Part shown: piece after piece, positions 8,014 to 25,786 of the stretch
How positions within the stretch are numbered: position 1 is the first letter of the stretch
How the letters are laid out: each line of letters opens with the position of its first letter
Assembly: GCA_947503245.1 (NCBI GenBank)
Contig: CANNCV010000002.1
Location: forward strand, 723,465 to 787,464
Direction of reading: 5' to 3'
Source of the DNA: an uncultured Sphingomonadaceae bacterium
Lineage (GTDB): Bacteria > Pseudomonadota > Alphaproteobacteria > Sphingomonadales > Sphingomonadaceae
Length of the DNA stretch: 64,000 bases
Position numbers and translations under genes: made by a program
The notes under the pieces: model-generated
Told to the model about the DNA's origin: nothing
The model's database searches: none
Seen by the model: the letters and a program-made list of their open reading frames with translations, nothing else

Positions 8014-8382
8014 TCAATTGGTGGATGCGCCGCCGGTACGGATCGGGATTGACAAAATGGCGCGGTTATTGGCGGGCGGCAGATCGGTGCGCTCACCCTC
8101 TATCGTGATAGACAATTGCCCCTGTGCATTGCCGTTGCTTAAAGCAACACGCAATAAGCGCAGACGCGGTTCAAAACGGCTAAGGGCCAAGGCCGTGGCA
8201 CCATAAAACAGGGCGCGGGTGGCGGCGTTTAATGGCTGGTCAACCAAATCATATAGCATTGAGCCATAATCACGGCGCATGACGCGGGTGCCCAATGGCG
8301 TGGTCAAAATATCGCCAATGGATTGCGCCAGATGATCGCTGCCGGTCAATTCTGCGCCTGTGTTGCGGTTCATTCCGGTCAT
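8014..8382 (-). CDS. baseplate assembly protein W (gp25-like)
   Basis: DHLAQSIGDILTTPLGTRVMRRDYGSMLYDLVDQPLN. Confidence 0.9.
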   Translation of the reverse strand: MTGMNRNTGAELTGSDHLAQSIGDILTTPLGTRVMRRDYGSMLYDLVDQPLNAATRALFYGATALALSRFEPRLRLLRVALSNGNAQGQLSITIEGERTDLPPANNRAILSIPIRTGGASTN

Positions 8383-8963
8383 GGCGCTGGCGGTCCACTA
8401 GTGCCGCCACCCGTGGTGACGCCCAGATGGCGATGATCGGTCAGGCTGGTGCGGTTTGCACCGGCGGTCACATCATCATCGCTGTGCATGATGCCAGTAG
8501 CAGTGACATCACCGGTAATCTGAACATCACCAGTTATCCTGACTGTGTCTGCGGTGACGTCCAGCGTTGAACCGGCGGGCAAGGTAGCGGTCAGAATATG
8601 GCCAATCGGATCATAACTGATCTGCGCACCATCATTATAGCTGACCATTTCTGTCTGATCATTGCCAATAGGCGGGAAAATATCAGAAACAATGCCGGGC
8701 AGAGCAACCGCACCCGCCAATTCACCACCGGGGCAAAGGATGATGACCTGTTCGCCAATGCTGGGCGGTGACCAGATTCGCGTTTGACCGGCACGGGGCG
8801 CAAGCCAGCGAATGGGCGGTGTTTCAATCGCGCCATCAACAGCATCACCAATGCGGCAAGTGCACCGCGCTTCGGCACGGTCAACTGTCAGCACGGTGCC
8901 AATGCGGCAAATGCTGTGCGTATCAAGCGCAATATCTTCTGGTGCGGGTGGCGAGTAATTCAT
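8379..8963 (-). CDS. baseplate assembly protein V
   Basis: Gp45/V-like N-terminus and C-terminal HRHLGVTTGGGTSGPP; start set at MNYSPPAPEDI inside the longer ORF (8990). Confidence 0.85.
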   Translation of the reverse strand: MNYSPPAPEDIALDTHSICRIGTVLTVDRAEARCTCRIGDAVDGAIETPPIRWLAPRAGQTRIWSPPSIGEQVIILCPGGELAGAVALPGIVSDIFPPIGNDQTEMVSYNDGAQISYDPIGHILTATLPAGSTLDVTADTVRITGDVQITGDVTATGIMHSDDDVTAGANRTSLTDHRHLGVTTGGGTSGPPAP

Positions 8964-9002: not shown

Positions 9003-9035
9003 CCTCTATTGTCAGAGGCGGACTGACAATAGAGG
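9003..9035. promoter_or_regulatory. late-operon palindrome upstream of V
   Basis: CCTCTATTGTCAG-aggcgga-CTGACAATAGAGG, 13-bp perfect arms, centre 56 bp upstream of the V start. Confidence 0.7.
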
Positions 9036-9052
9036 TTTTGCTGTTCATGTAT

Positions 9053-11365
9053 TTAGGCGGCAACATCACCGGCAAAGCAACCGGCATCCCATGGGCCATT
9101 ATCTGGCAGGGCTGTGCCATCCAGATCATGGCTGATAACTTTTTTATGCACCGTGGCACGTGCGACAGAACCGGCCTGCAAATGCAGATCACTGCCGCCC
9201 GCCCCTGCAATAGCATCACCATTTGCGCCGGTTGTGCCCTTAAAATTCACAAAGCGGATATCTGCCATCACCTCATCATCATCATGCAGCACACTGCCCA
9301 GACCAGCAAAAAGCGGATGCTCTGTTTCTATAACATTGGCGGCAAACAGACTGACATTACCAGTGCAGCCAACACCATGATCCAGCGCCATATTGCCAAT
9401 ATGCGACGGGTCAAACGGGCCGAAACGATGGTTTTTGACATTTAGCTGACCCATAATATTGCCCATAATCAAATGCAGAACATGCGTCTGGTTGACTTTG
9501 CCGGGGCTGGAAAAACCGGAATATAGCAAATTCCATCGGCCAAATTCACTAAAGCCAGTGGCGGTATTATGCACCACCACAGCGCCGCGTGAATTGCCGC
9601 CATTGCTACACACCTGAACCGCTGCACCGCTATTGGTGCCAGTATATTCCAGCATATTTTGCACAATGGCAACGCCTGTCACTACTTCATCAATCAGGCC
9701 CGCGCCGGTCAGGCTTAATGTTGGCCCGTCACATTCCCGCAGTGGATTGCAGTAAACAACACAGCCCTGTGTTTCATCACGCAGGGTGAAATTGCCCGGC
9801 CGCGTAAAGGCATTGCCTATGGCGCACCAGCCATCATAGGTTGCACCAGCCAGATCACCAGAGATACCGCGCAACAGACGCATTTCACTATTGCCGGGAA
9901 TACCCAAAATAGCACTACTTCCACTGTGCCCAGTGATATTCATGCCAGTGATGTAACAGCTATTTGCCCCGCTGATTATCGCGCCATCATAATTAGCATT
10001 GTCAAAATCCACATCATCCAGCCAGAGACGCATGGGTCGCACTGGGCCGCCCCCTGCCTCATTATACTGGCCAAAATTGCTGTTACCGATGCGGCGCAAA
10101 CCCACATCAGCAATGCGCAATATGGCTTCCCCGCTAGGCGTGGTCAGGCTGTCACCTGTGCCCAAACGCGGGCGGAAATTCTCACCGCCAAAATCATAGG
10201 CCACATCGCTGCGCGGTACATTCGGGTCACGCGTCAATGTCAATGCAGCAATTTGCTGGTGAATGGATGTTGCACCATTGGGCGCGGTCAGTTCATGATT
10301 GCCAGCATTAGCGCGGATAATACAACCATCAGAAATGCCGCCAGTTGCCGCCAGATTGGCCTGATCATCAATGGCCAGCAATGCGCCTTCCACTGTTTTG
10401 AAACGCGCCATCTGCGCCACGGTGGCATCTGTTGACCACATGCCCGCATCATCATTTGGCAATGCGCTATTAATATAGGCCAAGGGCGGATTGTTGAACC
10501 GCTCCACATCTTTGCGGTAATAGCGCGGGCTAAAGGCTTTAATATCGTCACTGTCTGCGCTGTCTATCACGCTGGCATCATCGCCCAGCCACGGGAATGC
10601 GCGGCCATTTAGGGTGATCAAAGGGCCATCAAGATCAGTAATATCCAATGTGCCGGAAAATACTGTGCAGGGCACTGCATCTTTGCCCCATGTTGAAGGC
10701 TGCGGATCATTAGAAATTTCCTCAACAATGCCATTGCCGCCATCTGTTGCGCGCACTTTAACACATGGCACCATCTGGCCATCACGCGCACCATGGTGAA
10801 ATACCACCACTTCCCAATAGAGCGAATTGCCAATGACAATCTGGTCAACCATGGCCCAGCGCACGGTTGGTTTTTCACTGACCAGCACAGAGTTATTTTC
10901 AAACCCGAAAACCGTGTCCGTGGCCAGCAACCATTCATCAAAAGCCACGCCAAATTCTGTGTCCTGATCTTGATTGGGCGCAATATCACCGCGCCGCCGC
11001 GTGATGGTGATTTTGTCATTATGCACAGTCGCATTGCCCTGACGGTCAAAACCTTTGCGGCTGACCGGAAAGGTAACAGGGTTGCTGTCTGGCGCAAATT
11101 CAGGCGGTGCAATCGTGTAATCGCCAGTCCAGCCCAGCACATCAACACTGGCCAGCGGCACCGCAGGCGGCGCAGAACCCAATGCAAACTCCAGCGCATC
11201 AAGCCGCATTGTCAAAGCCGCCAGCGTTACCGAAACATTGCCAATAATGCTGGTGATAGGCGCGATCACCAATTCATCATCTTTCACCATGGGCACCATT
11301 TCTGCGCCGGTCAGTGGCAAATTGGCAGGCGGCAGTAATGAAATGCGATTAGGGGCATCGGTCAT
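9053..11365 (-). CDS. putative tail spike/fibre with probable parallel beta-helix region
   Basis: 770 aa in late tail region; N-terminal ISLLPPANLPLTGAEMVPMVKDDE (phage fibre N-domain style) and C-terminal SHDLDGTALPDNGPWDAGCF typical of beta-helix proteins. Confidence 0.65.
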   Translation of the reverse strand: MTDAPNRISLLPPANLPLTGAEMVPMVKDDELVIAPITSIIGNVSVTLAALTMRLDALEFALGSAPPAVPLASVDVLGWTGDYTIAPPEFAPDSNPVTFPVSRKGFDRQGNATVHNDKITITRRRGDIAPNQDQDTEFGVAFDEWLLATDTVFGFENNSVLVSEKPTVRWAMVDQIVIGNSLYWEVVVFHHGARDGQMVPCVKVRATDGGNGIVEEISNDPQPSTWGKDAVPCTVFSGTLDITDLDGPLITLNGRAFPWLGDDASVIDSADSDDIKAFSPRYYRKDVERFNNPPLAYINSALPNDDAGMWSTDATVAQMARFKTVEGALLAIDDQANLAATGGISDGCIIRANAGNHELTAPNGATSIHQQIAALTLTRDPNVPRSDVAYDFGGENFRPRLGTGDSLTTPSGEAILRIADVGLRRIGNSNFGQYNEAGGGPVRPMRLWLDDVDFDNANYDGAIISGANSCYITGMNITGHSGSSAILGIPGNSEMRLLRGISGDLAGATYDGWCAIGNAFTRPGNFTLRDETQGCVVYCNPLRECDGPTLSLTGAGLIDEVVTGVAIVQNMLEYTGTNSGAAVQVCSNGGNSRGAVVVHNTATGFSEFGRWNLLYSGFSSPGKVNQTHVLHLIMGNIMGQLNVKNHRFGPFDPSHIGNMALDHGVGCTGNVSLFAANVIETEHPLFAGLGSVLHDDDEVMADIRFVNFKGTTGANGDAIAGAGGSDLHLQAGSVARATVHKKVISHDLDGTALPDNGPWDAGCFAGDVAA

Positions 11366-11382
11366 GGTCGTTATCCTTTGGT

Positions 11383-12471
11383 CTAAATTTTCATGATATA
11401 GGCAAGGGCAAAATAGGGCGGCAGATGATCGGCAGTTTCGATTGACAGGCCGTGATTATGCGCTTCGCCGCCGCCAGTGGCCGATGACAGGCCAATATTT
11501 GCGCCATCGGTTCCGTCACTGTTAAAACTATATTCCTGATTTTCTTCTGTGCGGGATTTGAATGACACGCTGTTAGCAGCGGTCAAAACGCCATCACCTT
11601 CAACATTTTTCGCCGTCTGGTGACGGTGGGAAGGCATCTGGTTTTCTGTCAGCACATGGTTCGCAACCGCGCCGCCATGGGCATGGCTGGCACTGCCGCC
11701 ACTATCACCCACATTATAAGTATCACCCGCACCAATGATGAATTGTCCGGTCAGGTCTGGTGTCCCGTTGGTACCATCACATAAGGCCCAGCCCAAAGGC
11801 ACCAAAGCACCAGACCACATGCCGATAAAACCCTGTGGCAGTGCTTCGCGGATGAGGCGCTGCGTCTGCTCTGGTGTCATGCTGTGTGTGGCATTGTCCG
11901 CGTCATCCGCTTCCACTGCGCTGGCCAATGGGCGGGTGCCTGCAATGGCGCGTAGGGTTTTTGCCGGTGTCATGATACGCAGATCATCAACACCTTCATC
12001 AACCTCTGCATTGTCCGCAATCTCTGCCACGCCCTGCAAAATTTCACTGGCTGGCGGATAGCTGAAATTGGCATCACCAAAGTTGATGACGGCCGCCTGG
12101 TCATTCTGCAATGTGATATCTGCGGCAATCAAAGCGGTTGCGCTGTCTGTTTTGGAAAGGAATGGCGCATCTGCGCTATACACGGCCAGCAATGTGCCAT
12201 CGGCCAGAAACAGACCAAAGCCGGTAATATCATAATTGTCTGTGCTGCTATCCCGCGCGGTGACATGCACCATATTGGGCGCGGCTGTTTCACCGGACAC
12301 GCTATCCAGTGCTTTTATTTGCCCCGGCAATGCGGTCAATGTTGGTGCCATCACAAATGGTGTGCTGGTGACGCCCATGCTGGCGATTGTCACGGCATCT
12401 GTGCCGCCATTTTGCGCGTCTACAATCGCATCAAAACCGGCATCGGTAATCATCATGTTTAGCGCGGTCAT
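11383..12471 (-). CDS. phage tail fibre with tail-collar domain (gpH-like)
   Basis: GFIGMWSGALVPLGWALCDGTNGTPDLTGQFIIGAGDTYNVGDSGG collar motif. Confidence 0.85.
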   Translation of the reverse strand: MTALNMMITDAGFDAIVDAQNGGTDAVTIASMGVTSTPFVMAPTLTALPGQIKALDSVSGETAAPNMVHVTARDSSTDNYDITGFGLFLADGTLLAVYSADAPFLSKTDSATALIAADITLQNDQAAVINFGDANFSYPPASEILQGVAEIADNAEVDEGVDDLRIMTPAKTLRAIAGTRPLASAVEADDADNATHSMTPEQTQRLIREALPQGFIGMWSGALVPLGWALCDGTNGTPDLTGQFIIGAGDTYNVGDSGGSASHAHGGAVANHVLTENQMPSHRHQTAKNVEGDGVLTAANSVSFKSRTEENQEYSFNSDGTDGANIGLSSATGGGEAHNHGLSIETADHLPPYFALAYIMKI

Positions 12472-12481
12472 AATATTCCCT

Positions 12482-13132
12482 TTATGGCTCTAAAAACTGG
12501 CCGTTTTCGTCTTGCAAAGGCTGGCCATCTTCTGACAACAGCCAGCGCTGCCATGATGCATCATCATCATGGGCTGCGGCGTAGATATTGCGGCCAAAAA
12601 TGGCGTTGCGCCCTGCACTGACAGCAAAAATTCGGGCCATGGCGTCCACACTCTGCACAAAATCAAAATGCGCGCGCACTGGCTTTACCGCTGTGACATC
12701 GCGGATGATGGCGGCGGCGGTTTCTTGCGTTAAAAAACTGGCCGGAATATCCGCAGCCGGTGCCTGAATTTCAAATGTGTATGGCTGGCCGCTGCCCGAT
12801 GGTTCAAACCATTCAATAATCTGTAACAGCGGGTGAAATCTCTCCAGCACTTCACGCACCGATGCGCGGGTGCCTTTGCGCCGGTGAAAGGGTATGGCAT
12901 CGGCAATGGCGGCCCGTTTTTGCGCTTCACTCCAATCACTATCCCATTGGCTGATCGCCAGACCCCATGCCAGAAAGGGCAATATGGGTGCGGGGCAAAG
13001 CAACGGATTCCACAAATCACCAATGGCGGACAGATCAGGATTGGCGCGCATTGCGCTTTCCATGACAAATTCAAAATCACTGCTTTGCGGCGGCAATAAT
13101 GATTGCATTTTCACTGCGTCATCAATGGTCAT
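12482..13132 (-). CDS. phage tail protein I
   Basis: LLPPQSSDFEFVMESAMRANPDLSAIGDLWNPLLCPAPILPFLAWGL; adjacent to J. Confidence 0.88.
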   Translation of the reverse strand: MTIDDAVKMQSLLPPQSSDFEFVMESAMRANPDLSAIGDLWNPLLCPAPILPFLAWGLAISQWDSDWSEAQKRAAIADAIPFHRRKGTRASVREVLERFHPLLQIIEWFEPSGSGQPYTFEIQAPAADIPASFLTQETAAAIIRDVTAVKPVRAHFDFVQSVDAMARIFAVSAGRNAIFGRNIYAAAHDDDASWQRWLLSEDGQPLQDENGQFLEP

Positions 13133-13139
13133 GCGCCGC

Positions 13140-14078
13140 TCATTCTGCGATGCCGCTGTCTGTCAACATGATGTTTTGCGCATAGGCCGCTTGTGCAGGG
13201 CCAACCACCACATCATTGGCCGGGCTGGAGAGCAAAACATTTTGAATGCCCGCCACTTTTAGTGCGGATATAATACCAGCCTTTGTGATATCACGGCCAA
13301 GGCGGCGGTTATCTGACAAAAACGCATCCAGCGTGTCACGCGCCGTTTGCAATATCAGGCTGCTATCCGGGCCGGAATAACGAAACAGATTGGCCTCAAT
13401 GTCAAAATTGATAATATCTGCACTGGCTACCGTCACTTGATCGGTCAAAGGCCGCACCGCATCATCATTCACAATGGCGGTGACATCGGCAATCATCTGG
13501 GCGGTTGCTGTTCCGTCACCATCACCAATATTGGGCCGCGCCAATAACGACACCAGCACTTGGCCGGGTGCGGGTGATGTTGCGCTGGCATCGATCACAT
13601 CACTATTGGCTGATCGCGCATGAAATATATAGGCCAGTTCCGGCCCCGCCACAGAAAAACTATTGGGTGCAATCAAAATCCGTTCGCGAAAATCATCATC
13701 ACTTTCGGGCACAGATACTTCACCGAACATTGGGTTGATGCCGGTTGTTGATAAACGCTCAACACCCATTAACGCGCCCAAATGGTCCAATGCTGCGCCA
13801 GTGGCAAAGGCCAGCAACAGCGATTTTGCGGCATCATTAAATGCGGCCGCCAACACCATTTCATCATAGGTGTCAGCCTCTATCAATTTCACTGCCGGGT
13901 CACTGGCCACCAATGCCGTTTGCTGCGCCGCCAAGGCCGCAAACCGGTCCAGCTTATCCTGTCTGCGCGTTTCAAAATCGGGTTGGTCAATCAATTGCGG
14001 CGGTGGCAATCGTGACAGATCGACTGCCGGGCTGGTGGCAATGGATGCTGGCGCTATAGGGTTTTCATTTTCGGGCAT
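13140..14078 (-). CDS. baseplate assembly protein J
   Basis: DLSRLPPPQLIDQPDFETRRQDKLDRFAAL...GVERLSTTG; upstream of I. Confidence 0.9.
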   Translation of the reverse strand: MPENENPIAPASIATSPAVDLSRLPPPQLIDQPDFETRRQDKLDRFAALAAQQTALVASDPAVKLIEADTYDEMVLAAAFNDAAKSLLLAFATGAALDHLGALMGVERLSTTGINPMFGEVSVPESDDDFRERILIAPNSFSVAGPELAYIFHARSANSDVIDASATSPAPGQVLVSLLARPNIGDGDGTATAQMIADVTAIVNDDAVRPLTDQVTVASADIINFDIEANLFRYSGPDSSLILQTARDTLDAFLSDNRRLGRDITKAGIISALKVAGIQNVLLSSPANDVVVGPAQAAYAQNIMLTDSGIAE

Positions 14079-14124
14079 GCGGTCTGACTGGCCCAGTATG
14101 TCACACTATTTCTAGTCTGCTGTG

Positions 14125-14145
14125 TTGTCAGTCCGCATCTGACAA
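14125..14145. promoter_or_regulatory. late-operon palindrome upstream of J
   Basis: TTGTCAG-tccgcat-CTGACAA; centre 57 bp upstream of the J start. Confidence 0.7.
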
Positions 14146-14189
14146 TATGGGTTATTCAGGATCAAGATGCGCGACTGCTCAACCGCTTA

Positions 14190-14492
14190 TCAATGCAGAT
14201 TGCGGCTGCGCACTAAGGCTTCGCCCTTGGTGACCATGGCCGCTGTACGCACAGTGTCAGTGGCTTTTGCTAGAGTGCGGAATATAGCCGCCATATAATC
14301 GGCCGGCATATCCGGCGCGTCCCTGCCCTGTTCATTCTGGTCAACCAATATGGCAATGCCCTGCATCGCCTCGCTGATTGTACGCAGATCATATTCCGAA
14401 TCTTCACTGAACACATATCCGCCCAGTTTTTGCGCTGTGGCGGTTTCATCTGTACGCGCTGCGCCAGAATGGGTATTGCGGGTATTAGCCAT
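14190..14492 (-). CDS. small phage protein of unknown function, copy A
   Basis: 100 aa MANTRNTHSGAARTDETATAQKLGGYVFSEDSEYDL...; nearly identical to copy B at 25385-25687. Confidence 0.75.
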   Translation of the reverse strand: MANTRNTHSGAARTDETATAQKLGGYVFSEDSEYDLRTISEAMQGIAILVDQNEQGRDAPDMPADYMAAIFRTLAKATDTVRTAAMVTKGEALVRSRNLH

Positions 14493-14522
14493 GATGATCA
14501 CCTTTCGATCGTTATTGGTTAG

Positions 14523-14555
14523 GGCCGATGACAAGGTTGCTGCCTTGCATCGGCC
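14523..14555. repeat. inverted repeat (hairpin) between copy A and the RHH gene
   Basis: GGCCGATG-a-CAAGG-ttgctg-CCTTG-CATCGGCC. Confidence 0.6.
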
Positions 14556-14560
14556 TGATT

Positions 14561-14602
14561 TTTATGGCACCATAAAATAACTATGTCAATAAATGGTTCC
14601 AT
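14561..14602 (+). promoter_or_regulatory. paired candidate operators for the RHH regulator
   Basis: TTTATGGcaCCATAAA at 14561-14576 and ATGGttCCAT at 14593-14602, flanking/overlapping the RHH start at 14583. Confidence 0.5.
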
Positions 14603-14771
14603 AAAAAAGCGCGGGCGACCGGCAACGGGTGTTAATACCGGTGTTAATGTTCGCTTACCGCAGAAGACAATCAAAGCGATAGATGACTGGATTGGTAGGC
14701 AGTCAGACAATCCTTCACGTCCTGAAGCAATTCGCCGTTTGCTCGATAAGGGCTTAGGAAAGACCTTGTGA
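14583..14771 (+). CDS. small ribbon-helix-helix (CopG/Arc-like) DNA-binding protein
   Basis: KKRGRPATGVNTGVNVRLPQKTIKAIDDWIGRQSDNPSRPEAIRRLLDKGL. Confidence 0.75.
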   Translation: MSINGSIKKRGRPATGVNTGVNVRLPQKTIKAIDDWIGRQSDNPSRPEAIRRLLDKGLGKTL

Positions 14772-15541
14772 CTAGTACACAGCAAAGTCCAATCAAGGAT
14801 CATAATAAAATTAGGTTGGCGACTGATAGGCTTAATACCTTAACCGGGGAAGAATTGACTATCCTCAAAGCACTCTTTGATCGTAGTTCAAAGAAGGAAA
14901 TTGCTTATAATCTTGGAGTTTCTACACGAACAGTATCTCGTCGATATAAATCGATATTAAGCAAGTTGCGGGTAAAAACACTGCCTGAGGCCATTTCTGT
15001 CTTTGTACAGGTCAGAAATTATCAAGACCTAGAATTTCGAACCAATGATATTGCAGCGGACCTCTTTCATGATTCATCTACCGCTATCACATCTTCAACT
15101 TGGACTGGTAAACAAACCCCCAAGGAAATTCGGCAGGCAGTGATCCACGCAGCACCTATGTTATTGGAAGGGTTAGATGCACTGATAATAGCTGTCGAAG
15201 CCAAGCGTATAAATGATCCTGATGCTCAGACTGCTCTGGATGCTGCAAAAGAACTACATTCTGCACTTGACGAATTGATCCGCTATGCTGAGGCTGGACA
15301 GGGATTAAGCAGGTTGAATGAAATGTGGGGCAGTATTCGGGACAAATCCATGCAGCTATTTTCTGATCACGGCGTCTTTGCTACCACCTCACCTATCTTA
15401 GCAATAGGCACGGCTGCAATGCTTGAATTGGCTTCGGGAGAAAATCTTGATGGTAGCGCACTTGCTACAATATGGGCTGGCTGGCTAGCTGCCGATATTG
15501 CAAAGAAATTTGGTGGCGGCAAAACCAATAAGGACATTTGA
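14768..15541 (+). CDS. LuxR/GerE-type HTH protein with uncharacterised C-terminal region
   Basis: LTGEELTILKALFDRSSKKEIAYNLGVSTRTVSRRYKSILSKLRVKTLPEAISVF; overlaps the RHH stop by 4 bp. Confidence 0.7.
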   Translation: MTSTQQSPIKDHNKIRLATDRLNTLTGEELTILKALFDRSSKKEIAYNLGVSTRTVSRRYKSILSKLRVKTLPEAISVFVQVRNYQDLEFRTNDIAADLFHDSSTAITSSTWTGKQTPKEIRQAVIHAAPMLLEGLDALIIAVEAKRINDPDAQTALDAAKELHSALDELIRYAEAGQGLSRLNEMWGSIRDKSMQLFSDHGVFATTSPILAIGTAAMLELASGENLDGSALATIWAGWLAADIAKKFGGGKTNKDI

Positions 15542-15553
15542 TTAACACATATA

Positions 15554-15604
15554 CGCCCAATTTTGCGCTGTGGCGGTTTCGTCTGTACGCGCTGCGTCAG
15601 CATG
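15554..15604 (-). pseudogene. N-terminal remnant (third copy) of the duplicated small phage gene
   Basis: cgcccaattttgcgctgtggcggtttcgtctgtacgcgctgcgtcagcatg aligns to cgcccagtttttgcgctgtggcggtttcatctgtacgcgctgcgccagaatg in copy A. Confidence 0.7.
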
Positions 15605-15674
15605 AACGCTTTATCAAGTCCGGCCCTGTCAACTGTAAGGATGGCATTTCACGCGCTTGCTGGATGTTTTCGGC

Positions 15675-16151
15675 TTAATCTTGATCCAAATGCTTGGCCA
15701 TCGCATCCAATATGCCAGCGCGGTCATCGTCATTAAATCCTAATAGACGGCGTTGCGTCATGCGCGCCCTAATCCGTGTGCCATCTTTTAATTTGCCGAA
15801 TGTTACGGTTAAACCAAAATGATGCTGTGCGGCTATTCTGGACAAACCACCTTTGAAAGTCAGTTCGCCACCATCGGCATCAGCGGTGATTGGCATATTC
15901 CGTAAACGACGAATATTGCGAAACATCTTTGAGCGATTACGAATGCGGAAAGCCCTGCCCGTTCGTCTTTTATCAGGCTTGCGCGGTGCCATGGCTGTGC
16001 CATCGGGCTGCACATTGGCGGCAATGCGTTTGGCATTGGCCTTGCGCACTTCACGCATGATTTTGATGGACAGGCCGCGCATTGGCGCAGGGTCCAATGT
16101 GGCCAGATAATCGCCCAGCCAATCCTCTAACGCGGTCAGATCATCAGCCAT
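15675..16151 (-). CDS. phage virion morphogenesis/tail completion protein, gpS-like
   Basis: LTALEDWLGDYLATLDPAPMRGLSIKIMREVRKANAKRIAANVQPDGTAMAPRK. Confidence 0.85.
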   Translation of the reverse strand: MADDLTALEDWLGDYLATLDPAPMRGLSIKIMREVRKANAKRIAANVQPDGTAMAPRKPDKRRTGRAFRIRNRSKMFRNIRRLRNMPITADADGGELTFKGGLSRIAAQHHFGLTVTFGKLKDGTRIRARMTQRRLLGFNDDDRAGILDAMAKHLDQD

Positions 16152-16169
16152 TATTTTGCGCGGTGCTGT

Positions 16170-16637
16170 CTATTCAAAATCACCGGGACTGCCTAACCGA
16201 CGCACTGGTGATGTGTCAAATTCAGTAAACGGGTTTTCTGGCTCTGGCACATATTCCATGGCAAAGCTGCCATCATCATTGCGCACGGCGCGCACATTCT
16301 CTGTCAGATCGATGCTGATTTCCAGATCAACAGCCTTATTGTCCAATATATCGACATCAAAACCAAATGCCTGCCCCGTGCCTCTGCCCTTTGCCGCTAC
16401 CAATTCGGGCTGATTGGTGCGCAGCCAATATAATATTGTGGCCGATAATACCGCCAGATCACCAGTGAAAGACAGCATGAAAATGCGCAGCGTATAGCGA
16501 TGTTCAAAGCTATAATCATCTGTGCCATAACCGCGCACATTGCCGGTTTCTGTGATCACAATAAATTGCTGCGGATTGATTTTGGTATCGGGCAAAGCCT
16601 CTGTGATCGCTTTGCGCAGGCTTTTAGGCTTTCTCAT
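16170..16637 (-). CDS. tail completion protein, gpR-like
   Basis: MRKPKSLRKAITEALPDTKINPQQFIVITETGNVRGYGTDDYSFEHRYTL; adjacent to S. Confidence 0.85.
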   Translation of the reverse strand: MRKPKSLRKAITEALPDTKINPQQFIVITETGNVRGYGTDDYSFEHRYTLRIFMLSFTGDLAVLSATILYWLRTNQPELVAAKGRGTGQAFGFDVDILDNKAVDLEISIDLTENVRAVRNDDGSFAMEYVPEPENPFTEFDTSPVRRLGSPGDFE

Positions 16638-16659
16638 TATCCAGCTTTCATGTCTCTGT

Positions 16660-16929
16660 TCAGGGCTTTACCGGTGGTTTTGGGCACAGCGCATCATAGC
16701 GGGCATTATGCACTTGAATTTCGTCAATCGTTTCTGGGGTGTCTGCCGCATTGCCTTTATCAATTTGTGCAGGGCGCGGCTTTTCACGCTCTGCCAGCGG
16801 CAATTGCGCGAAGCTGATATTGCGCAGATTCAGGCAGGCATCACTAACAATTTTCGGGGGTGCGACTGTGCTGCATGCAGCCAGCATGGGCAGCATCAGG
16901 ATCATTGCGCAAAGTGTTTTCAGCGTCAT
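16660..16929 (-). CDS. putative Rz1-like outer-membrane spanin lipoprotein
   Basis: MTLKTLCAMILMLPMLAACS lipobox; overlaps 16844-17131 out of frame. Confidence 0.6.
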   Translation of the reverse strand: MTLKTLCAMILMLPMLAACSTVAPPKIVSDACLNLRNISFAQLPLAEREKPRPAQIDKGNAADTPETIDEIQVHNARYDALCPKPPVKP

Positions 16930-17131
16930 TGGCTTTTTCCGTTCGTTCGATAGTGGTTTGCAGGGCTTCATTGGTGACTTTGGCCGCGCCTGCATCTTCT
17001 GCGGCGTCAAAAGCGGTGTTGATGAAATGGCGGGCCGCAATAATGGCCAGCGCAAAAGCCATGGCGATGCCAACCAGCACCAGAATTTTATGGCCCTTTT
17101 TCATTGCTTCAAAAATTGCGAATATTTGCAT
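16844..17131 (-). CDS. putative Rz-like inner-membrane spanin
   Basis: N-terminal TM helix then AEDAGAAKVTNEALQTTIERTEKANDAENTLRNDPDA; overlapping downstream lipoprotein ORF. Confidence 0.6.
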   Translation of the reverse strand: MQIFAIFEAMKKGHKILVLVGIAMAFALAIIAARHFINTAFDAAEDAGAAKVTNEALQTTIERTEKANDAENTLRNDPDAAHAGCMQHSRTPENC

Positions 17132-17132
17132 G

Positions 17133-17330
17133 TCATTCTCCAAAAAAAACAATGGCCAGCGCCATAAACCCGGCAACAATCCAGCCACCAAAAACAACCA
17201 GCATGCCGCAGCCCAAAACCAGTTTTTCCTCTGTATTTATTTTGCTCTGTTGGCGGCGTTTGCATGGGTTAATCCCTTCTGTCCGGCGGCGGGCCATCAT
17301 CATTGGCGGTGAAGTAAAAGGCGGCGGCAA
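17133..17330 (-). CDS. small membrane protein, possible holin component
   Basis: 65 aa with hydrophobic segment VLGCGMLVVFGGWIVAGFMALAIVFFG in lysis cluster. Confidence 0.5.
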   Translation of the reverse strand: MPPPFTSPPMMMARRRTEGINPCKRRQQSKINTEEKLVLGCGMLVVFGGWIVAGFMALAIVFFGE

Positions 17331-17499
17331 GGCCGATTAACCCCTGAACAATCACTGCCTGTGACAATGTTTTGAACAGGTCATTCTCTGCCAAATCAGG
17401 CCGCATAATCATGATGACAAAAATCATGATGGTCAGGATGACAAAGCCCAGCACCAATGCCGCACGGGCCGATGCCGGAGTAAGTTTGGGCAGTCTCAT
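17269..17499 (-). CDS. small membrane protein, possible holin
   Basis: 76 aa, two hydrophobic segments, directly downstream of the lysozyme gene. Confidence 0.5.
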   Translation of the reverse strand: MRLPKLTPASARAALVLGFVILTIMIFVIMIMRPDLAENDLFKTLSQAVIVQGLIGLAAAFYFTANDDGPPPDRRD

Positions 17500-18179
17500 G
17501 CCTGCATGGCCATGTGCAAATCGGCAGTGATGTCAACACGGCGGGCCGATGACCAAACGGGCTTGCGCCCCTGCACATCATAAACCGTGGCCTTGCCATC
17601 GCTTGACCATTTGCCATCAAAAAACAAATCACGTTCTTTTGTGCGGCGCGGTATGATTTCACGCGGCTTGCGCCAGTTCATAAATGCCTTGCGGGCACTG
17701 ACCGGGCGGCCAACATTAAATTCGTTTACCCATGACGCGCGCAAAATCGCGCCGGTGTTATAATGAAATGACAGGGCAGCGGCATATTGCGCCTCATTCA
17801 ATGGCTGGTCATTAAAGGCGCGCCGCACATCTGGGCCATATTTTTCTGCACACAGCCAAGTGAATATTTCCAGACACCGGGCAATTGATTGCGGATTGTT
17901 AATATAGCGGTCAACGCCATGGCCCGATGCGCTAGTCACGCCAACGCCCCATGTCAAAATGCCTACACTGTCCAAATATGCCTCTGGCACAATCGCTTCA
18001 TGCGCGACCAGTTCCATCATGATGCGCGGCGTCAATGTATAGGGCACATAGCTGTCACTGCTAGACGCAGCGATTGACAGGCCCAGGGCGGCGGCAACAG
18101 CGCGGGCCGTATCTGGCCCCCATTTTCCATCTGCCGCCAAACCCAAATGCTTTTGAATATCAGTGAGTGCTGGAGTCAT
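17496..18179 (-). CDS. endolysin: N-terminal peptidoglycan-binding-like repeat plus lysozyme domain
   Basis: IQKHLGLAADGKWGPDTARAVAAALGL then LVAHEAIVPEAYLDSVGILTWGVGVTSASG. Confidence 0.8.
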   Translation of the reverse strand: MTPALTDIQKHLGLAADGKWGPDTARAVAAALGLSIAASSSDSYVPYTLTPRIMMELVAHEAIVPEAYLDSVGILTWGVGVTSASGHGVDRYINNPQSIARCLEIFTWLCAEKYGPDVRRAFNDQPLNEAQYAAALSFHYNTGAILRASWVNEFNVGRPVSARKAFMNWRKPREIIPRRTKERDLFFDGKWSSDGKATVYDVQGRKPVWSSARRVDITADLHMAMQA

Positions 18180-18490
18180 TGCGCCATCTCCAGCATGCAG
18201 CGTGTCTTAACACCTGTTTTATCAACCAATTGATCAATAGTGCGCGTGGTGCAGTTCATAAAGGATGACCGGGCATCCAACCGGTCCTTATTCTCTTGTG
18301 CCAACACCACAATATAATCGACTTTTTTATCAATTGCGGTCAGCTTTTCCGATTGTGCGGGTGATAATTGCGCTTCCGCCGGCATGGCAGAAATTACTGC
18401 GCCGGCCGCTGCGGCAAAACCGGCAAAAAGGGCGGCAATGGCGGTTATCAATCGCGACTTGCTGTCTATCAGTTCCAGTGTTTTGGGCAT
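18176..18490 (-). CDS. hypothetical phage membrane-anchored protein
   Basis: N-terminal hydrophobic helix; overlaps lysozyme start. Confidence 0.5.
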   Translation of the reverse strand: MPKTLELIDSKSRLITAIAALFAGFAAAAGAVISAMPAEAQLSPAQSEKLTAIDKKVDYIVVLAQENKDRLDARSSFMNCTTRTIDQLVDKTGVKTRCMLEMAQ

Positions 18491-18491
18491 T

Positions 18492-18713
18492 TTATGCAGC
18501 TCCTAAATCCCATAGCTTCACGGTTTCGCGCATTGCGGGTGCGGCATTTGTAATTTCGGGAAGGGTCACCAACGTGCCCGCTGGCACAATTGCACCCAGT
18601 GCAGACAAGCCGGGGTTAAGCGCCAAAGCCTGTTCAAAGACACCGGCAGTGCGGCCCAATATACGCCAGCAAATCGCGTCCAATGGCTCACCCAAAGATG
18701 CGGCCACCATCAT
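18492..18713 (-). CDS. tail protein X (LysM-like)
   Basis: LDAICWRILGRTAGVFEQALALNPGLSALGAIVPAGTLVTLPEI. Confidence 0.85.
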   Translation of the reverse strand: MMVAASLGEPLDAICWRILGRTAGVFEQALALNPGLSALGAIVPAGTLVTLPEITNAAPAMRETVKLWDLGAA

Positions 18714-19225
18714 ATCAACACCACGCGGTTACGCTGACCATCAACAGGGTCAAAATCATCATCATGGGCCGGGCGAATAGATATCAGGTCCGCAACAGCA
18801 TTATGCGCTTGGCGGCGATATTCATCTGCGCTCATATTTTCTTCACTGGCGCGGATCTGGCCCTCATCTGTGGCGGTGATATCGCGGTGATTGTCTGCAA
18901 TCTCTGCCGCCGCATAATAGCGGATGATGCGCTGCCATAGGATGACGGGGCGGGTGCTGCCCGCCATGGCGATATCTGGCAAGGTTTCCAGACTGGCCAC
19001 ACCTGCACTGGCATGGGCGCTGCGCCATGCGGCAAGGGCGCGCAATGCGGTTATTATTGCGCCCTCTACTGCGGCAACCAGACGGGCATGCGTCACTACG
19101 CCCTCACCAATGCGCACAGTCGCGCGGATGCTGGAGAGGGAAATAGCGGGAAACCAGCCATCAACTTCAACCATGGCATTGTCTGGCGTTTCGGGGTCAG
19201 ACGGTGTTGCAACAAAATTGGTCAT
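18710..19225 (-). CDS. head completion/stabilization protein, gpL-like
   Basis: Synteny N-M-L-X; VDGWFPAISLSSIRATVRIGEGVVTHARLVAAVEGA. Confidence 0.85.
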   Translation of the reverse strand: MTNFVATPSDPETPDNAMVEVDGWFPAISLSSIRATVRIGEGVVTHARLVAAVEGAIITALRALAAWRSAHASAGVASLETLPDIAMAGSTRPVILWQRIIRYYAAAEIADNHRDITATDEGQIRASEENMSADEYRRQAHNAVADLISIRPAHDDDFDPVDGQRNRVVLI

Positions 19226-19364
19226 TTTTTCGCCTTTCCCTAAATTGCTTGCATGGCCCCCGTGCTGGCGGTTTTAGGCCGGGTGAGAAAATGGGCACAT
19301 CAATCATGCTGCGCGGCACATGATCTGCACAATTTTCGCCCGGCCAGCGCCGTGGGCGAGCTGG

Positions 19365-20120
19365 TTAATCCTGTGGCTGCAAAGCCTTTTTCAAATCTGT
19401 GATGTTGCGCTTCACACCGGCCTTGCTGTTCAGCGCCAAAGCCTGTTCAAAATGCGCCAGCGCAGATGTTTGCAAAGCCTGTAATTGCCCCGCCACGGCA
19501 TTTTCTGCATTCGGGTCATGCGCTTCAATCTGCACCAAAGCTGACCGGCCCAATGCCTTAAACATTTTGGCCCGTGCCTGGTCTGGTATGGTGGTGACAT
19601 CAGCCTTGGTCAGTTCATGCGCTTCCACCAATATAGCATGCGGAACATCATCATTTTTCAGTGACAATTCGGCCAATGTTTCGGCCACATAACAGCCGGT
19701 TGACCGGTCAAAACGCTCTGGCAATGGCAGGCCAAATGCCAGCATGTGCCGGGCAATCGCCATGGCAAATTCAAAATCGCCAATATCCAAAGCCCAGATC
19801 AACATTGTGGCAACAATTTCATCAGGCGCGGCGCTGTCTGCGCCTTCACCAGCCTGTAAAACACCATCAACCCATGGCCGATATTGCGCCATTTTATCGC
19901 GCTTGATCGGGTTGCGGGCCTCAATTGATGCAATTTCACTTATCTTTCGCACATCATCATGCAGCACAACCAACAGCGCATCATATTCCGCCTGTGCGGC
20001 TGTCTTACGCGGGGTGGCATCACCCGCCACCGGCACCTTTTGGCCATTTGATTGCGCCTTTTGGGCGGCCAATTGCTGGGCGGCTTTGCGTTCTTTTGTG
20101 CGGCGGGCCAGTGATCTCAT
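19365..20120 (-). CDS. terminase endonuclease (small) subunit, gpM-like
   Basis: Synteny; ATMLIWALDIGDFEFAMAIARHMLAFGLPLPERFDRSTGCYVAE. Confidence 0.88.
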   Translation of the reverse strand: MRSLARRTKERKAAQQLAAQKAQSNGQKVPVAGDATPRKTAAQAEYDALLVVLHDDVRKISEIASIEARNPIKRDKMAQYRPWVDGVLQAGEGADSAAPDEIVATMLIWALDIGDFEFAMAIARHMLAFGLPLPERFDRSTGCYVAETLAELSLKNDDVPHAILVEAHELTKADVTTIPDQARAKMFKALGRSALVQIEAHDPNAENAVAGQLQALQTSALAHFEQALALNSKAGVKRNITDLKKALQPQD

Positions 20121-20204
20121 GCGGGAATTCCTTTTGCTATAATCTGCGGATGAGGGTGATGCGGAAAAGGCGGGTTATGCGGCACCCGCCCATTAGGTTT
20201 TGGG

Positions 20205-21317
20205 CTATGCCTGGGTGCGCGCTGGCGCTTCACCAATCACAATATTTTCCACCAAAGCGGTCAGTACATATTCTTCCACCACATAGGCTTCGGAAACAGA
20301 TTCATAATTGGCAATGCGCTTATATTCCGGCTCATCAACCATGCGGCGGCGGCGGGTGCCTTCATGATAGTAAATGGACAAATTATCCATTGTGGTGATC
20401 AGCAGCGCATTGCTGGGGAAAAAGCTGACGCCATAAGCTTTCAAACCGCCCAATTGTTTGCTGGATGATAACAGCCGGTCCGTGGCTTCCACTTCGGTGG
20501 CGGTGCCGCCCGCTTGCTGGGCGATATTGAAATATTTATCGTCAACCAGATCATGACCAACAATCACCACCAAATCAGTGCTGTTGCGATAGCGTTCATG
20601 AATCAATGTTTTGGCATCACGCACCAGCGCATCAAGCGATGAATAATCCGCCTGGGCTGTGGTCGCATTGTCCGCACCCTCATCAAACAAAGCGACACCT
20701 GGTTTAACGTAAATGGCAGAGCGACCAGCGTCATTTGTACCGTCTGACAAGACGGTCAGATCACCATCATCAATCACTTGACCAGGTGCATTGGCGCGGA
20801 TTTTTTCCAGCCAACCAATATTCACATCTTGCAACAATGGGTTCGCTTCGCGGTCAGTATTTGCAGCAACAAAAGTACCATTGAAACCGATCATCATGCG
20901 GTCTAGCGCTTGTTGATTGAGAATGGCATCGCGCAACCGCGTCTCAAAATTGGGTAGATGCCGCCAAGCATCAATCTTTTTATAGCTGCGGCTCCAATTA
21001 TAGTCCGTATCTTCACACTCATAAGAAATTTTCTCACCCGACAAGCTAGGATCAGCCGGGTTAAGCCGCGTTCCATTACTGGTGTCTGTGCGGCCCGCAA
21101 TACTGCCGCTATCAAGGCCCAAAACCTGCCCTTTGGCATTATTAACGCCATGCACGTTGATCATAGTCAAAAATTCGCTGGACTCGCGAATGCGATTTTC
21201 TGCGGTTTGCTCAATTTGCGGCGCAACGTTGAATTCATGTGCAGCCGAATCCACACCGTTCAACAGTGCGATGTGAGAAACAAAAGCCATGAATTTTTGG
21301 CGGGTCAATTTATGCAT
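20205..21317 (-). CDS. major capsid protein, P2 gpN-like
   Basis: MHKLTRQKFMAFVSHIALLNGVD...FTVAPQIEQ-type N-terminus; synteny. Confidence 0.92.
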   Translation of the reverse strand: MHKLTRQKFMAFVSHIALLNGVDSAAHEFNVAPQIEQTAENRIRESSEFLTMINVHGVNNAKGQVLGLDSGSIAGRTDTSNGTRLNPADPSLSGEKISYECEDTDYNWSRSYKKIDAWRHLPNFETRLRDAILNQQALDRMMIGFNGTFVAANTDREANPLLQDVNIGWLEKIRANAPGQVIDDGDLTVLSDGTNDAGRSAIYVKPGVALFDEGADNATTAQADYSSLDALVRDAKTLIHERYRNSTDLVVIVGHDLVDDKYFNIAQQAGGTATEVEATDRLLSSSKQLGGLKAYGVSFFPSNALLITTMDNLSIYYHEGTRRRRMVDEPEYKRIANYESVSEAYVVEEYVLTALVENIVIGEAPARTQA

Positions 21318-21388
21318 CGATTTAATCCTTTAATTTGGCAATGTGCCCAGAGTGTCAGGGCCGTGAAACAGGCCGATATTGCGTTTGA

Positions 21389-22297
21389 TTAACAGTCGGT
21401 TTTGACCATATCTGCGCCGCCAGTGGCGGGTGCGCGGAATTGCTGGCCGGGGGCGGCGGTGCTTTCCATTTTGCTGTTCAGCGCGTCGATGCGGTCACGC
21501 TCTGCCTGCAATTCGCTGGAAAATTTTGTGCCCAAAGCATCAATAGCCGTGGTCATATTATCGGCCACGCCCTGCATGATCACGCCAAAGGCTGCGACAT
21601 CAAATTGCGGGGCGGCTTCTGGGACGGCGGGTGCGCCTGTGGCTGGCTGCGCTGCGGCGGCGGGCGGTGTGGTTTGTCCGGTGTTGCCAGCATGTTGCTG
21701 ACCAGCGCCAAAGTTTTTGAAAAAGTCCGTCATGGCGGTGAACAGACCAGCGGTTTCAACCGGTGATGCTGCGGCCTCTGCAAAAGCCAATTGCGCCGCA
21801 TCAAGGCCCATATGCTGTGCGCTGAATTGTTCTGTGCCGGGCGCTTGGCGGTTAAATTCCAAACGCTCTGTGCCAACGCTGGCGGGGCTGTCTGTCAATG
21901 CGACACCCGCCAGATAAGCAAAGCCCTGCCCTGCAAAATTGGGATAGATTTCAATGCTGGAATAGAGTTTTTGACCGGCATCATTTAATGCTTTGGCTTC
22001 ATCAGTGACATCAAAAACGCCATATAGGGCCGTGCGCTTTTCATCTTTGCCATTAAAATTCACGGTCACTTCACGCGCTGACAATGACAGAACATCGCCA
22101 TAAGCCTTGAACGGGCCATCGGTACTAAGCCCGCGAATATGTTCTAAATTAACCCGCGCTGCATAGGTTTTCGGGTCATAGGCCGAGGCCATATCGGTCA
22201 GCATCTTTGGGTCAATATTGCGGCCATCAACTGTTGTGCCCGATGTGGCCAGCAAGAATTCTTTGGTTTTCATGGGTCTATGCTCCGTTACCTTCAT
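21389..22297 (-). CDS. capsid scaffolding protein/protease, gpO-like
   Basis: LLATSGTTVDGRNIDPKMLTDMASAYDPKTYAARVNLEHIRG; start may be 22273. Confidence 0.9.
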   Translation of the reverse strand: MKVTEHRPMKTKEFLLATSGTTVDGRNIDPKMLTDMASAYDPKTYAARVNLEHIRGLSTDGPFKAYGDVLSLSAREVTVNFNGKDEKRTALYGVFDVTDEAKALNDAGQKLYSSIEIYPNFAGQGFAYLAGVALTDSPASVGTERLEFNRQAPGTEQFSAQHMGLDAAQLAFAEAAASPVETAGLFTAMTDFFKNFGAGQQHAGNTGQTTPPAAAAQPATGAPAVPEAAPQFDVAAFGVIMQGVADNMTTAIDALGTKFSSELQAERDRIDALNSKMESTAAPGQQFRAPATGGADMVKTDC

Positions 22298-22361
22298 GAC
22301 GCGGCTTGCGCCTGTCTCCGGCCCCTTTGGGCATCAAAACTACATGGGAATGCAAGGCGCT

Positions 22362-22390
22362 TCTATTGTCAGAGCTAGACTGACAATAGA
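22362..22390. promoter_or_regulatory. late-operon palindrome between divergent O and P
   Basis: TCTATTGTCAG-agctaga-CTGACAATAGA; centre 57 bp upstream of the P start. Confidence 0.7.
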
Positions 22391-22432: not shown

Positions 22433-24322
22433 ATGGCCAAAAGCGCAGCATCATCGCCGGAAAAACAGGGGAAAGCCGTGACGGGCGCAACGCCCCTAAA
22501 CGGTTTTGACCCGGAAAACCGCGCCCAGCGGCGGGAAGCCCGTTCGCTATATTGGCGTGGCTGGACTGTGCAACAGATTTGCGCGGAATTGGGCCTGAAC
22601 ACCAACACTGTCAACAGTTGGAAAAGGCGCGATGGATGGGCCAATGACGACCCGGTGCGGATTATAGAGGACAGGCTGGAAATCCGCATTGCCAATCTGC
22701 TGGACAAACCAAAAATTGATGAAGGGGATATGAAACGCATCGATTTTTTGATGCGGCAAATGCAAAGCGCGGCCCGCATTCGCAAATATAACCAGACCGG
22801 CAAAGAAAGCGATTTGAACCCGAAAATTGCCAAGCGCAATGACGGTGAAGCCATTGCCAAACGGGCGAAAAAGAAAAACCAGCTAACGCATGACCAGATA
22901 GAGGATTTGCGGGCGTCATTTCACGATTGCCTGTATCAGCATCAGCGCGAATGGTGGCAGGCCGGTCTTGAGACAATCCGTTTCATCCTGAAATCACGGC
23001 AAATTGGTGCAACATGGTATTTTGCGCGTGAAGCGCTGATCCGCGCATTTGACACTGGCAATACGCAAATATTCCTTTCCGCATCGCAAAGCCAATCATT
23101 GATATTTGCCGATTATATCAAAGCGTTTGTGCTAGAGGTCACGGGCGTTGAATTAAAGGGCACAAAGCCGCTGATCATCAACCGGCTTGACGATGATGGC
23201 AATGATTTGCCGCCGCTAACATTCCGCTTTTTGGCCACCAATTTTCGCACGGCGCAGGGCTATAATGGTGATGTCTATCTGGATGAATGTTTTTGGGTTG
23301 GCGGTTTCAAAGATTTTGATGAAGCGGCCAGCGCCATGGCCAGCCAAAAGCAATATCGCCTAACCTATTTTTCAAAACCCTCTGGCGTTAATCATCCTGC
23401 CTATAAAAAATGGGATGGCAGTGATTATAACCGTGGCCGCGCAAAATCTGACCAGATTACCATTGATATTTCGCACAAAGCGCTGCGCGATGGCCAGCGC
23501 GGGCCAGATGATATCTGGCGGCAAATCGTTACGCTGGATGATGCGATTGCCAAAGGCTTTGACCTGATAGACCGTGCATCGGTTGAAAAACGCTATGCGC
23601 CGGATATTTTTGCCAATCAATATTTGTGCGTATTTCTTGATGACAGCCAAAGTTCATTCCCTTTTGATCTTATTGGCCCATGCCGCGTTAACAGCTTTGA
23701 CAAATGGCCAGATTTTCACCCGGCACTGGTCAATATAGAGGGCGGCCGCCCATATGGTGAAAAGCCGGTTTTGATTGGCGTTGACCCGAATAATCAGGGC
23801 CGTGATGATGCCGCTATTTGCGTATTGGCTGCACCGGACGGTGAGGGTCAGCCATTCCGATTGCTGGAAAAACTGCGCTTTACTGGTGAAGATTTTGCAG
23901 GCCAGAATGAGCGGATAAAACAGGTCTATAATCGCTATAATGTGATTGATATTGCCGTCGACACAACCGGCGGTATGGGCAAGGCTGTTTTTGAATTGAT
24001 GGCGCAGTGGTTTCCATTAGTGCGGCGCATTGATTATTCCATCGCTGTCAAATCGCACCTGGTGCAAAAGGCGCAGAACGTGATGCGCACCAGGCGTTTT
24101 GAATTTGACCGTGCCGATACCGATGTGCAAGCGGCATTTATGGCGATTAAGCCCAGCATTACGCCCAGCGGGCGCGCCGTAACCTACACAACACAGCGCA
24201 GTGAAGGCGTGGGCCATGGCGATATTGCATGGGCCATCATGCATGCAATTTCTTATGAAAAACTAACCGGTGAAGCCATGGGCAGCGGCGGTTTTGCCAT
24301 ATTTTCCGCAAATAATGATTAA
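22433..24322 (+). CDS. terminase large (ATPase) subunit, P2 gpP-like
   Basis: HTH N-terminus ARSLYWRGWTVQQICAELGLNTNTVNSWK, ATPase/nuclease regions; divergent from O as in P2. Confidence 0.93.
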   Translation: MAKSAASSPEKQGKAVTGATPLNGFDPENRAQRREARSLYWRGWTVQQICAELGLNTNTVNSWKRRDGWANDDPVRIIEDRLEIRIANLLDKPKIDEGDMKRIDFLMRQMQSAARIRKYNQTGKESDLNPKIAKRNDGEAIAKRAKKKNQLTHDQIEDLRASFHDCLYQHQREWWQAGLETIRFILKSRQIGATWYFAREALIRAFDTGNTQIFLSASQSQSLIFADYIKAFVLEVTGVELKGTKPLIINRLDDDGNDLPPLTFRFLATNFRTAQGYNGDVYLDECFWVGGFKDFDEAASAMASQKQYRLTYFSKPSGVNHPAYKKWDGSDYNRGRAKSDQITIDISHKALRDGQRGPDDIWRQIVTLDDAIAKGFDLIDRASVEKRYAPDIFANQYLCVFLDDSQSSFPFDLIGPCRVNSFDKWPDFHPALVNIEGGRPYGEKPVLIGVDPNNQGRDDAAICVLAAPDGEGQPFRLLEKLRFTGEDFAGQNERIKQVYNRYNVIDIAVDTTGGMGKAVFELMAQWFPLVRRIDYSIAVKSHLVQKAQNVMRTRRFEFDRADTDVQAAFMAIKPSITPSGRAVTYTTQRSEGVGHGDIAWAIMHAISYEKLTGEAMGSGGFAIFSANND

Positions 24323-25378: not shown

Positions 25379-25384
25379 GGGCCA

Positions 25385-25687
25385 TCAATGTAGATTGCGG
25401 CGGCGCACTAAGGCTTCGCCCTTGGTGACCATGGCCGCTGTACGCACAGTGTCAGTGGCTTTTGCTAGAGTGCGGAATATTGCCGCCATATAATCGGTCG
25501 GCATGTCCGGCGCGTCCCTGCCCTGTTCATTCTGGTCAACCAATATGGCAATGCCCTGCATCGCCTCGCTGATTGTACGCAGATCATATTCCGAATCTTC
25601 ACTGAACACATATCCGCCCAGTTTTTGCGCTGTGGCGGTTTCATCTGTACGCGCTGCGCCAGAATGGGTATTGCGGGCATTAGCCAT
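25385..25687 (-). CDS. small phage protein of unknown function, copy B
   Basis: 100 aa, differs from copy A at only about three residues (T/A, A/T, S/R). Confidence 0.75.
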   Translation of the reverse strand: MANARNTHSGAARTDETATAQKLGGYVFSEDSEYDLRTISEAMQGIAILVDQNEQGRDAPDMPTDYMAAIFRTLAKATDTVRTAAMVTKGEALVRRRNLH

Positions 25688-25747
25688 GATGATCACCTTT
25701 GGATCGTTATTGGTTAGGGGCAGTGCAAGGCTGTAATCTTGCATCAC

Positions 25748-25786
25748 CCTGAAGCAATTCGCCGCCTGATTGCGAAAGGATTGAAA
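25748..25786 (+). pseudogene. 3' remnant of an RHH gene like 14583-14771
   Basis: cctgaagcaattcgccg is identical to 14721-14737; translates to PEAIRRLIAKGLKN vs PEAIRRLLDKGLGK. Confidence 0.65.

What the first reader, a model, noticed from the sequence alone, without database searches (positions are those of the whole stretch)
9003..22390. Shared TTGTCAG-N7-CTGACAA palindrome before three late transcription units of the prophage
Three perfect palindromes with identical geometry (TTGTCAG, 7-nt spacer, CTGACAA) lie at 9003-9035, 14125-14145 and 22362-22390. Their centres are 56, 57 and 57 bp upstream of the V, J and P start codons, and the third also sits between divergent O and P. The position between divergent genes rules out a simple terminator role there. 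P2 late promoters are controlled by the Ogr/Delta Zn-finger activators at a dyad sequence, TGT-N12-ACA. Here the dyad is TGT-N13-ACA and much more extended, so this may be a late regulon read by a different activator. No clear Ogr homologue was recognised in the window.
Basis: partly seen in the sequence, partly recalled or inferred. Interest (0 to 1): 0.72.

Follow-up and report, generated by a model that had tools for sequence, protein, structure and literature searches.

The report
Ogr-type late-promoter operators, leaderless geometry
The three matching DNA palindromes are very probably the docking sites of the prophage's own Ogr-type late-gene switch, whose gene lies just outside the window; their fixed distance to the start codons suggests that these late messages begin right at the start codon, with no leader.

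Summary
TTGTCAG-N7-CTGACAA occurs exactly three times in the 2.96-Mb genome, always at a late operon of a P2-like prophage (V, J, and the divergent O/P pair). The proposed "different activator, no Ogr" is not supported. An Ogr_Delta protein (PF04606, E 3.4e-11, CX2CX22CX4C) lies 1.37 kb left of the window edge. Other P2-like phages carry the same palindrome, or a different one of the same roughly 25-bp geometry, at the same genes, and those complete enough to check encode Ogr. Published Ralstonia phage motifs (TGTTGT-N13-ACAACA) have the same spacing, and P2 and Smp131 also share one site between P and O. So this is a new member of the known Ogr late-promoter kind. The less expected part is the spacing. 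From operator centre to ATG it is 55-59 bp in 30 of 34 V/J/P promoters from 22 phages, but 67-131 bp in all 20 O/FI promoters. P2's mapped starts lie 55-59 bp from its sites, and P2's V start is the ATG itself. V, J and P of this prophage are therefore predicted to be leaderless, which extends the P2 V case to a family-wide ruler. No transcript was measured.

The parts
9003..9035 (.). Operator 1 (core 9009-9029, 13-bp arms), in front of the V-W-FI-FII-E-T-U-D unit (- strand)
   Evidence: conserved at V in G306 and G307
14125..14145 (.). Operator 2, in front of the J-I-tail fibre-spike unit (- strand)
   Evidence: conserved at J in G307
22362..22390 (.). Operator 3 (core 22366-22386), shared between divergent P-Q (+) and O-N-M-L... 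(-)
   Evidence: conserved between P and O in G307, G308 and G309
8963..8963 (-). Predicted transcription start at the V ATG (leaderless; 56 bp from operator centre). Weak -10-like CATTCT at 8976-8971
   Evidence: inference from P2 mapped starts
14078..14078 (-). Predicted transcription start at the J ATG (57 bp from operator centre)
   Evidence: inference
22433..22433 (+). Predicted transcription start at the P ATG (57 bp from operator centre)
   Evidence: inference
8379..8963 (-). Gene V (baseplate), first gene of the V-D late unit; the 8990 ATG is probably not used
   Evidence: PF04717; start
13140..14078 (-). Gene J (baseplate), first gene of the J late unit
   Evidence: PF04865
22433..24322 (+). 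Gene P (large terminase), first gene of P-Q
   Evidence: PF03237, PF17289 and PF06056
21389..22297 (-). Gene O (capsid scaffold), first gene of the O late unit; ATG 79 or 103 bp from the operator, so leadered
   Evidence: PF05929

Best explanation
The palindromes are the operators of an Ogr-type zinc-finger activator encoded by this prophage just left of the window (G000:C2:721811-722098, - strand, between a Cro-like gene and the primase). After induction, Ogr from the early operon binds the three sites and recruits RNA polymerase about 55-57 bp downstream of the dyad centre. This turns on V-D, J-spike, P-Q and, in the other direction from the P site, O-S. For V, J and P that start point falls on the ATG, so their mRNAs should be leaderless; O is leadered. 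Shown here: the sites, the ogr gene, the conservation and the distances. Inferred: Ogr binding, the transcription starts and leaderless translation.
For: The genome has one PF04606 protein above cut-off, with CX2CX22CX4C and alignable to P2 Ogr. The three exact sites are unique in the genome. Among 120 IMG/VR stretches with the exact motif, all four with P2-like late-gene homologues have it in front of V, J or between P and O; of these only G307 is long enough to include an ogr, and it has one. Zymomonas element CP006891 has Ogr plus three palindromes of different sequence (TTCCCAT-N11-ATGGGAA) at P/O, V and J. P2 annotation gives site-to-start distances of 56, 55, 55.5 and 57-59, with the V start at the V ATG. 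Distance 55-59 in 30/34 V/J/P against 0/20 O/FI. Shine-Dalgarno pairing averages -1.4 against -6.0 kcal/mol (p=1.2e-4), and a -10 matrix trained on O/FI peaks at the same offset in V/J/P. TGTTGT-N13-ACAACA is published for phiRSY1 and phiRSA1.
Against: No binding or 5'-end data exist for this prophage. The -10-like hexamers in front of window V, J and P are weak. Window V has a TAATAAT closer to the operator that could give a start about 20 nt upstream of the ATG. P2's own P has a 23-nt leader, so P is not universally leaderless. The closest relative by P (L130) shows only a single, different palindrome, and the upstream region of a V homologue in its genome shows none.
Confidence: 0.88

Rival explanations
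1. The palindromes are operators of another phage regulator (LuxR-type 166-633 or 14768-15541, winged-helix 1432-1902, or the repressor), acting as activator or repressor of late genes.
For: Such genes lie in the prophage. The winged-helix protein has a weak 30% match in G307.
Against: The LuxR-type proteins have no match in G307, Zymomonas CP006891, Smp131 or P2, and the winged-helix protein none in the last three. All of these have Ogr, and G307 and CP006891 have operators of the same geometry. The sites mirror P2's Ogr-dependent units.
Confidence: 0.06
2. The sites are Ogr operators, but the polymerase starts 15-20 nt upstream of the ATG (operator overlapping -35), so V, J and P have short leaders without a Shine-Dalgarno.
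For: TAATAAT lies closer to the centre at window V. The window's -10 hexamers at the leaderless position are weak.
Against: P2 starts are mapped 55-59 bp from the sites. The -10 matrix from leadered promoters peaks at the same centre offset in V/J/P. The TAATAAT is not shared by the other promoters.
Confidence: 0.25
3. Intrinsic terminators or structured RNA elements.
For: Site 1 followed by TTTT scores as a terminator on the + strand.
Against: The tail is on the strand opposite to V. Sites 2 and 3 are not called as terminators. Site 3 lies between divergent genes. The distance to ATG is conserved across phages.
Confidence: 0.01

Closest known systems
P2 late promoters PP/PO, PV, PF with Ogr (and P4 Delta)
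   Same: Activator site at the same late units, one site shared by divergent P and O, start about 55-57 bp from the site centre, C4 zinc-finger activator; P2 V start equals its ATG
   Different: Here there is a longer, perfect dyad, TGT-N13-ACA rather than the TGT-N12-ACA consensus; J heads its own unit and V heads the tail unit; P is also predicted leaderless; ogr is in the early region rather than after D
Ralstonia phages phiRSY1/phiRSA1 Ogr motif TGTTGT-N13-ACAACA (PMC5694545)
   Same: Same arms (TTGT..ACAA) and the same N13 spacing, at -50 to -90 of the start codons of the late units
   Different: The inner CAG..CTG extension and the A/T flank differ; leaderless geometry was not discussed in the passages read
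Stenotrophomonas phage Smp131 PP', PO', PJ', PV' (PMC3931495)
   Same: Same four units including separate J and V units and one shared P/O site; Ogr homologue with the same cysteine spacing
   Different: Operator sequence differs; TTGT-N13-ACAA was not found there
Zymomonas mobilis P2-like element CP006891
   Same: Sphingomonadales; Ogr gene; three 25-bp palindromes at P/O, V and J; distances 56, 57, 57
   Different: Operator sequence is TTCCCATCG-N7-CGATGGGAA, and the element is a plasmid

Membership tests
Ogr/Delta-dependent P2-type late promoter regulon | Ogr/Delta C4 zinc-finger protein encoded by the phage | tested here: met
   PF04606 E 3.4e-11, over cut-off, only one in the genome; C5-x2-C8-x22-C31-x4-C36
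Ogr/Delta-dependent P2-type late promoter regulon | Dyad operator of TGT-N12(13)-ACA type upstream of each late unit | tested here: met
   Three sites cover all four late units; N13 as in phiRSY1, not the P2 N12
Ogr/Delta-dependent P2-type late promoter regulon | One site shared by divergent P and O | tested here: met
   P2 and Smp131 have the same
Ogr/Delta-dependent P2-type late promoter regulon | Same operator at the same genes in related phages with Ogr | tested here: met
   G306-G309 operators; Ogr found in G307, the other three being short fragments; Zymomonas
Ogr/Delta-dependent P2-type late promoter regulon | Ogr binds the dyad and is needed for late transcription | not testable with these tools
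   needs binding and genetics
Leaderless mRNAs (P2 V type) | Transcription start at the A of the ATG | tested here: inconclusive
   Distance 56-57 equals P2 centre-to-start distance; no 5'-end data
Leaderless mRNAs (P2 V type) | No Shine-Dalgarno before the ATG | tested here: met
   Duplex energies -1.5, -2.4, -1.5 kcal/mol for window V, J, P against a mean of -6.0 for O/FI; window O itself is only -2.5, so this test says little within this one phage

The most novel reading that the evidence does not exclude
In P2-like phages the Ogr operator acts as a ruler that puts the transcription start on the ATG of V, J and often P. Leaderless expression of baseplate and terminase operons would then be a conserved family trait, kept while operator sequence and Ogr specificity change from phage to phage (TTGTCAG, TGTTGTC, TTCCCATCG, TTGTAG, CCGTTG types). 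Late P/V/J translation would be set apart from the leadered capsid and tail-sheath operons by its initiation mode.
Probability: 0.6. Interest if true: 0.6.

Novelty: new member of a known kind. Interest (0 to 1): 0.42.

Why it matters
The regulon itself is expected for a P2-like phage; finding ogr outside the window settles the apparent puzzle. What matters more is the operator-to-ATG ruler. It turns one textbook case (P2 gene V) into a testable family-wide rule, separates leaderless (V/J/P) from leadered (O/FI) late operons, and can correct start codons (P of Pseudomonas phage Sirocco, Burkholderia phage KS14 and Mae-JY29 is annotated 18-36 bp too far upstream if the rule holds). It also offers natural pairs of Ogr protein and operator for reading a recognition code.

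Tried and rejected
(1) Chance: rejected, because the three exact sites are unique in the genome and absent from 300 order genomes. (2) Terminator: only site 1 is called, on the strand opposite to V. (3) LuxR or winged-helix activators: not shared by phages with the same operator geometry, apart from a weak winged-helix match in G307. (4) Most of the 120 IMG/VR exact hits are background: 116 showed no homologue of the late genes tested. (5) Searching the closest P relatives for the exact motif found nothing in L130; it has one different 25-bp palindrome 59 bp from the P ATG, unconfirmed elsewhere in that genome. (6) Smp131 published coordinates did not show the dyad in the current record. (7) Phage Milagro gave no shared palindrome. 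(8) Looser genome hits TTGTC-N11-GACAA outside the prophage (7 places, control 3) were not followed. (9) Papers linking Ogr and leaderless expression: none relevant in the held library.

Full report
Observation. The motif TTGTCAG-N7-CTGACAA is present without mismatch at 9009-9029, 14125-14145 and 22366-22386, with longer perfect arms at sites 1 and 3. It is found nowhere else in the 2.96-Mb genome and in none of 300 other genomes of the order. The flanking genes are P2-type late genes: V (PF04717), J (PF04865), P (terminase) and O (PF05929). Reading the gene order, the three sites sit in front of all four late units: V-W-FI-FII-E-T-U-D, J-I-fibre-spike, P-Q, and O-N-M-L and onward.

The missing Ogr. 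A whole-genome search finds one Ogr_Delta protein above the curated cut-off, at C2:721949-722089 on the minus strand. The window begins at C2:723465, so the gene lies just outside it. The likely protein starts MRHKCPACGG (ATG at L009:10099, 1.37 kb left of the window) and is 95 aa with cysteines spaced CX2CX22CX4C. It lies in the early region between a Cro-like gene and a primase, much as the ogr gene does in phage Sirocco.

Conservation. Of 120 IMG/VR stretches with the exact motif, the four that carry P2-like late-gene homologues have it directly in front of V, J or between P and O. One of these (G307, 38.6 kb) has an Ogr protein (E 1.5e-14) and sites TGTTGTC-N11-GACAACA at V, J and P; the other three are short fragments in which no ogr was found. 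A scan for TGTTGTC-N11-GACAACA brought in further P2-like phages with the dyad at V, J, P, O or FI. In the Zymomonas mobilis element CP006891 (Sphingomonadales, annotated Ogr gene) the three equivalent places hold a palindrome of a different sequence but the same 25-bp span, TTCCCAT-N11-ATGGGAA. Position and geometry are thus kept while the sequence changes, as expected if operator and activator change together; the co-change itself was not tested.

Known precedent. The P2 record annotates one activator site for both pO and pP, one for pV and one for pF, with starts 56, 55, 55.5 and 57-59 bp from the site centres; the pV start is the first base of V. Smp131 was reported with PP', PO' (one shared stretch), PJ' and PV' (PMC3931495). 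Ralstonia phiRSY1 and phiRSA1 were reported with TGTTGT-N13-ACAACA at -50 to -90 of the late start codons (PMC5694545). The window's dyad has exactly that N13 spacing.

The distance. Using the first in-frame ATG at least 45 bp from the operator centre, V/J/P starts are 55-59 bp away in 30 of 34 promoters from 22 phages (V 14/14, J 4/4, P 12/16), whereas O/FI starts are 67-131 bp away in all 20 (Fisher p about 3e-11, from the distances). The list was de-duplicated by hand, operators in named phages were found partly by eye from shared palindromes, and phages share ancestry, so the p-value is only a guide. Shine-Dalgarno pairing is weak before V/J/P and stronger before O/FI (mean -1.4 against -6.0 kcal/mol, p=1.2e-4), and a -10 matrix built from the leadered O/FI promoters and P2 mapped promoters scores highest in V/J/P at the same offset from the operator. 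Since the P2 starts lie 55-59 bp from their sites, V, J and P should start on or within about 3 nt of their ATG. Leaderless P2 mRNA is a recognised case (introduction of PMC4633059), and Z. mobilis has 119 mapped leaderless starts (PMC7566282). No held paper was found that connects Ogr operators with leaderless starts generally, though the held library lacks most subscription journals.

Annotation consequence. In Sirocco, KS14 and Mae-JY29 the annotated P start is a GTG 36, about 20 and 41 bp from the operator centre; the next in-frame ATGs are 57, about 57 and 59 bp away. If the ruler holds, those starts are wrong.

Verdict. The finding is real and is best filed as an Ogr late regulon, a new member of a known kind. 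The novel and testable addition is the operator-to-ATG ruler and its leaderless prediction, which remains an inference until 5' ends are mapped.

Noticed in passing
14189-14558 and 25384-25752 (plus 62 bp at 15544-15604): A 370-bp stretch is present twice at 95% identity (third partial copy), each coding a small protein of about 100 aa, one copy after the S/R end beside operator 2 and one after Q; the LuxR-type gene 14768-15541 lies between two of the copies.
   Followed up: partly
L189:15815-15839 (G307): A fourth operator of the same type (TGTTGTC-N11-GACAACA, extended arms) lies after Q in the related phage G307; what it drives is unknown.
   Followed up: no
L130:1054-1078: The nearest P relative (Sphingomonadaceae MAG) has a different 25-bp palindrome, GGCAGTAA-N9-TTACTGGC, 59 bp from its P ATG; possibly another operator specificity.
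   Followed up: partly
Ogr alignment A1: Phages with TTGT-type operators have Ogr with (R)(H/S/T)S(R/E) after the second cysteine, whereas Zymomonas (LLSSH), Mae-JY29 (IRDSD) and G301 (IRDSQ) have other residues and other operators; a lead for a recognition code.
   Followed up: no
L318, L319, L321: GenBank P starts of Mae-JY29, Sirocco and KS14 are probably annotated 18-36 bp too far upstream (GTG instead of ATG).
   Followed up: partly
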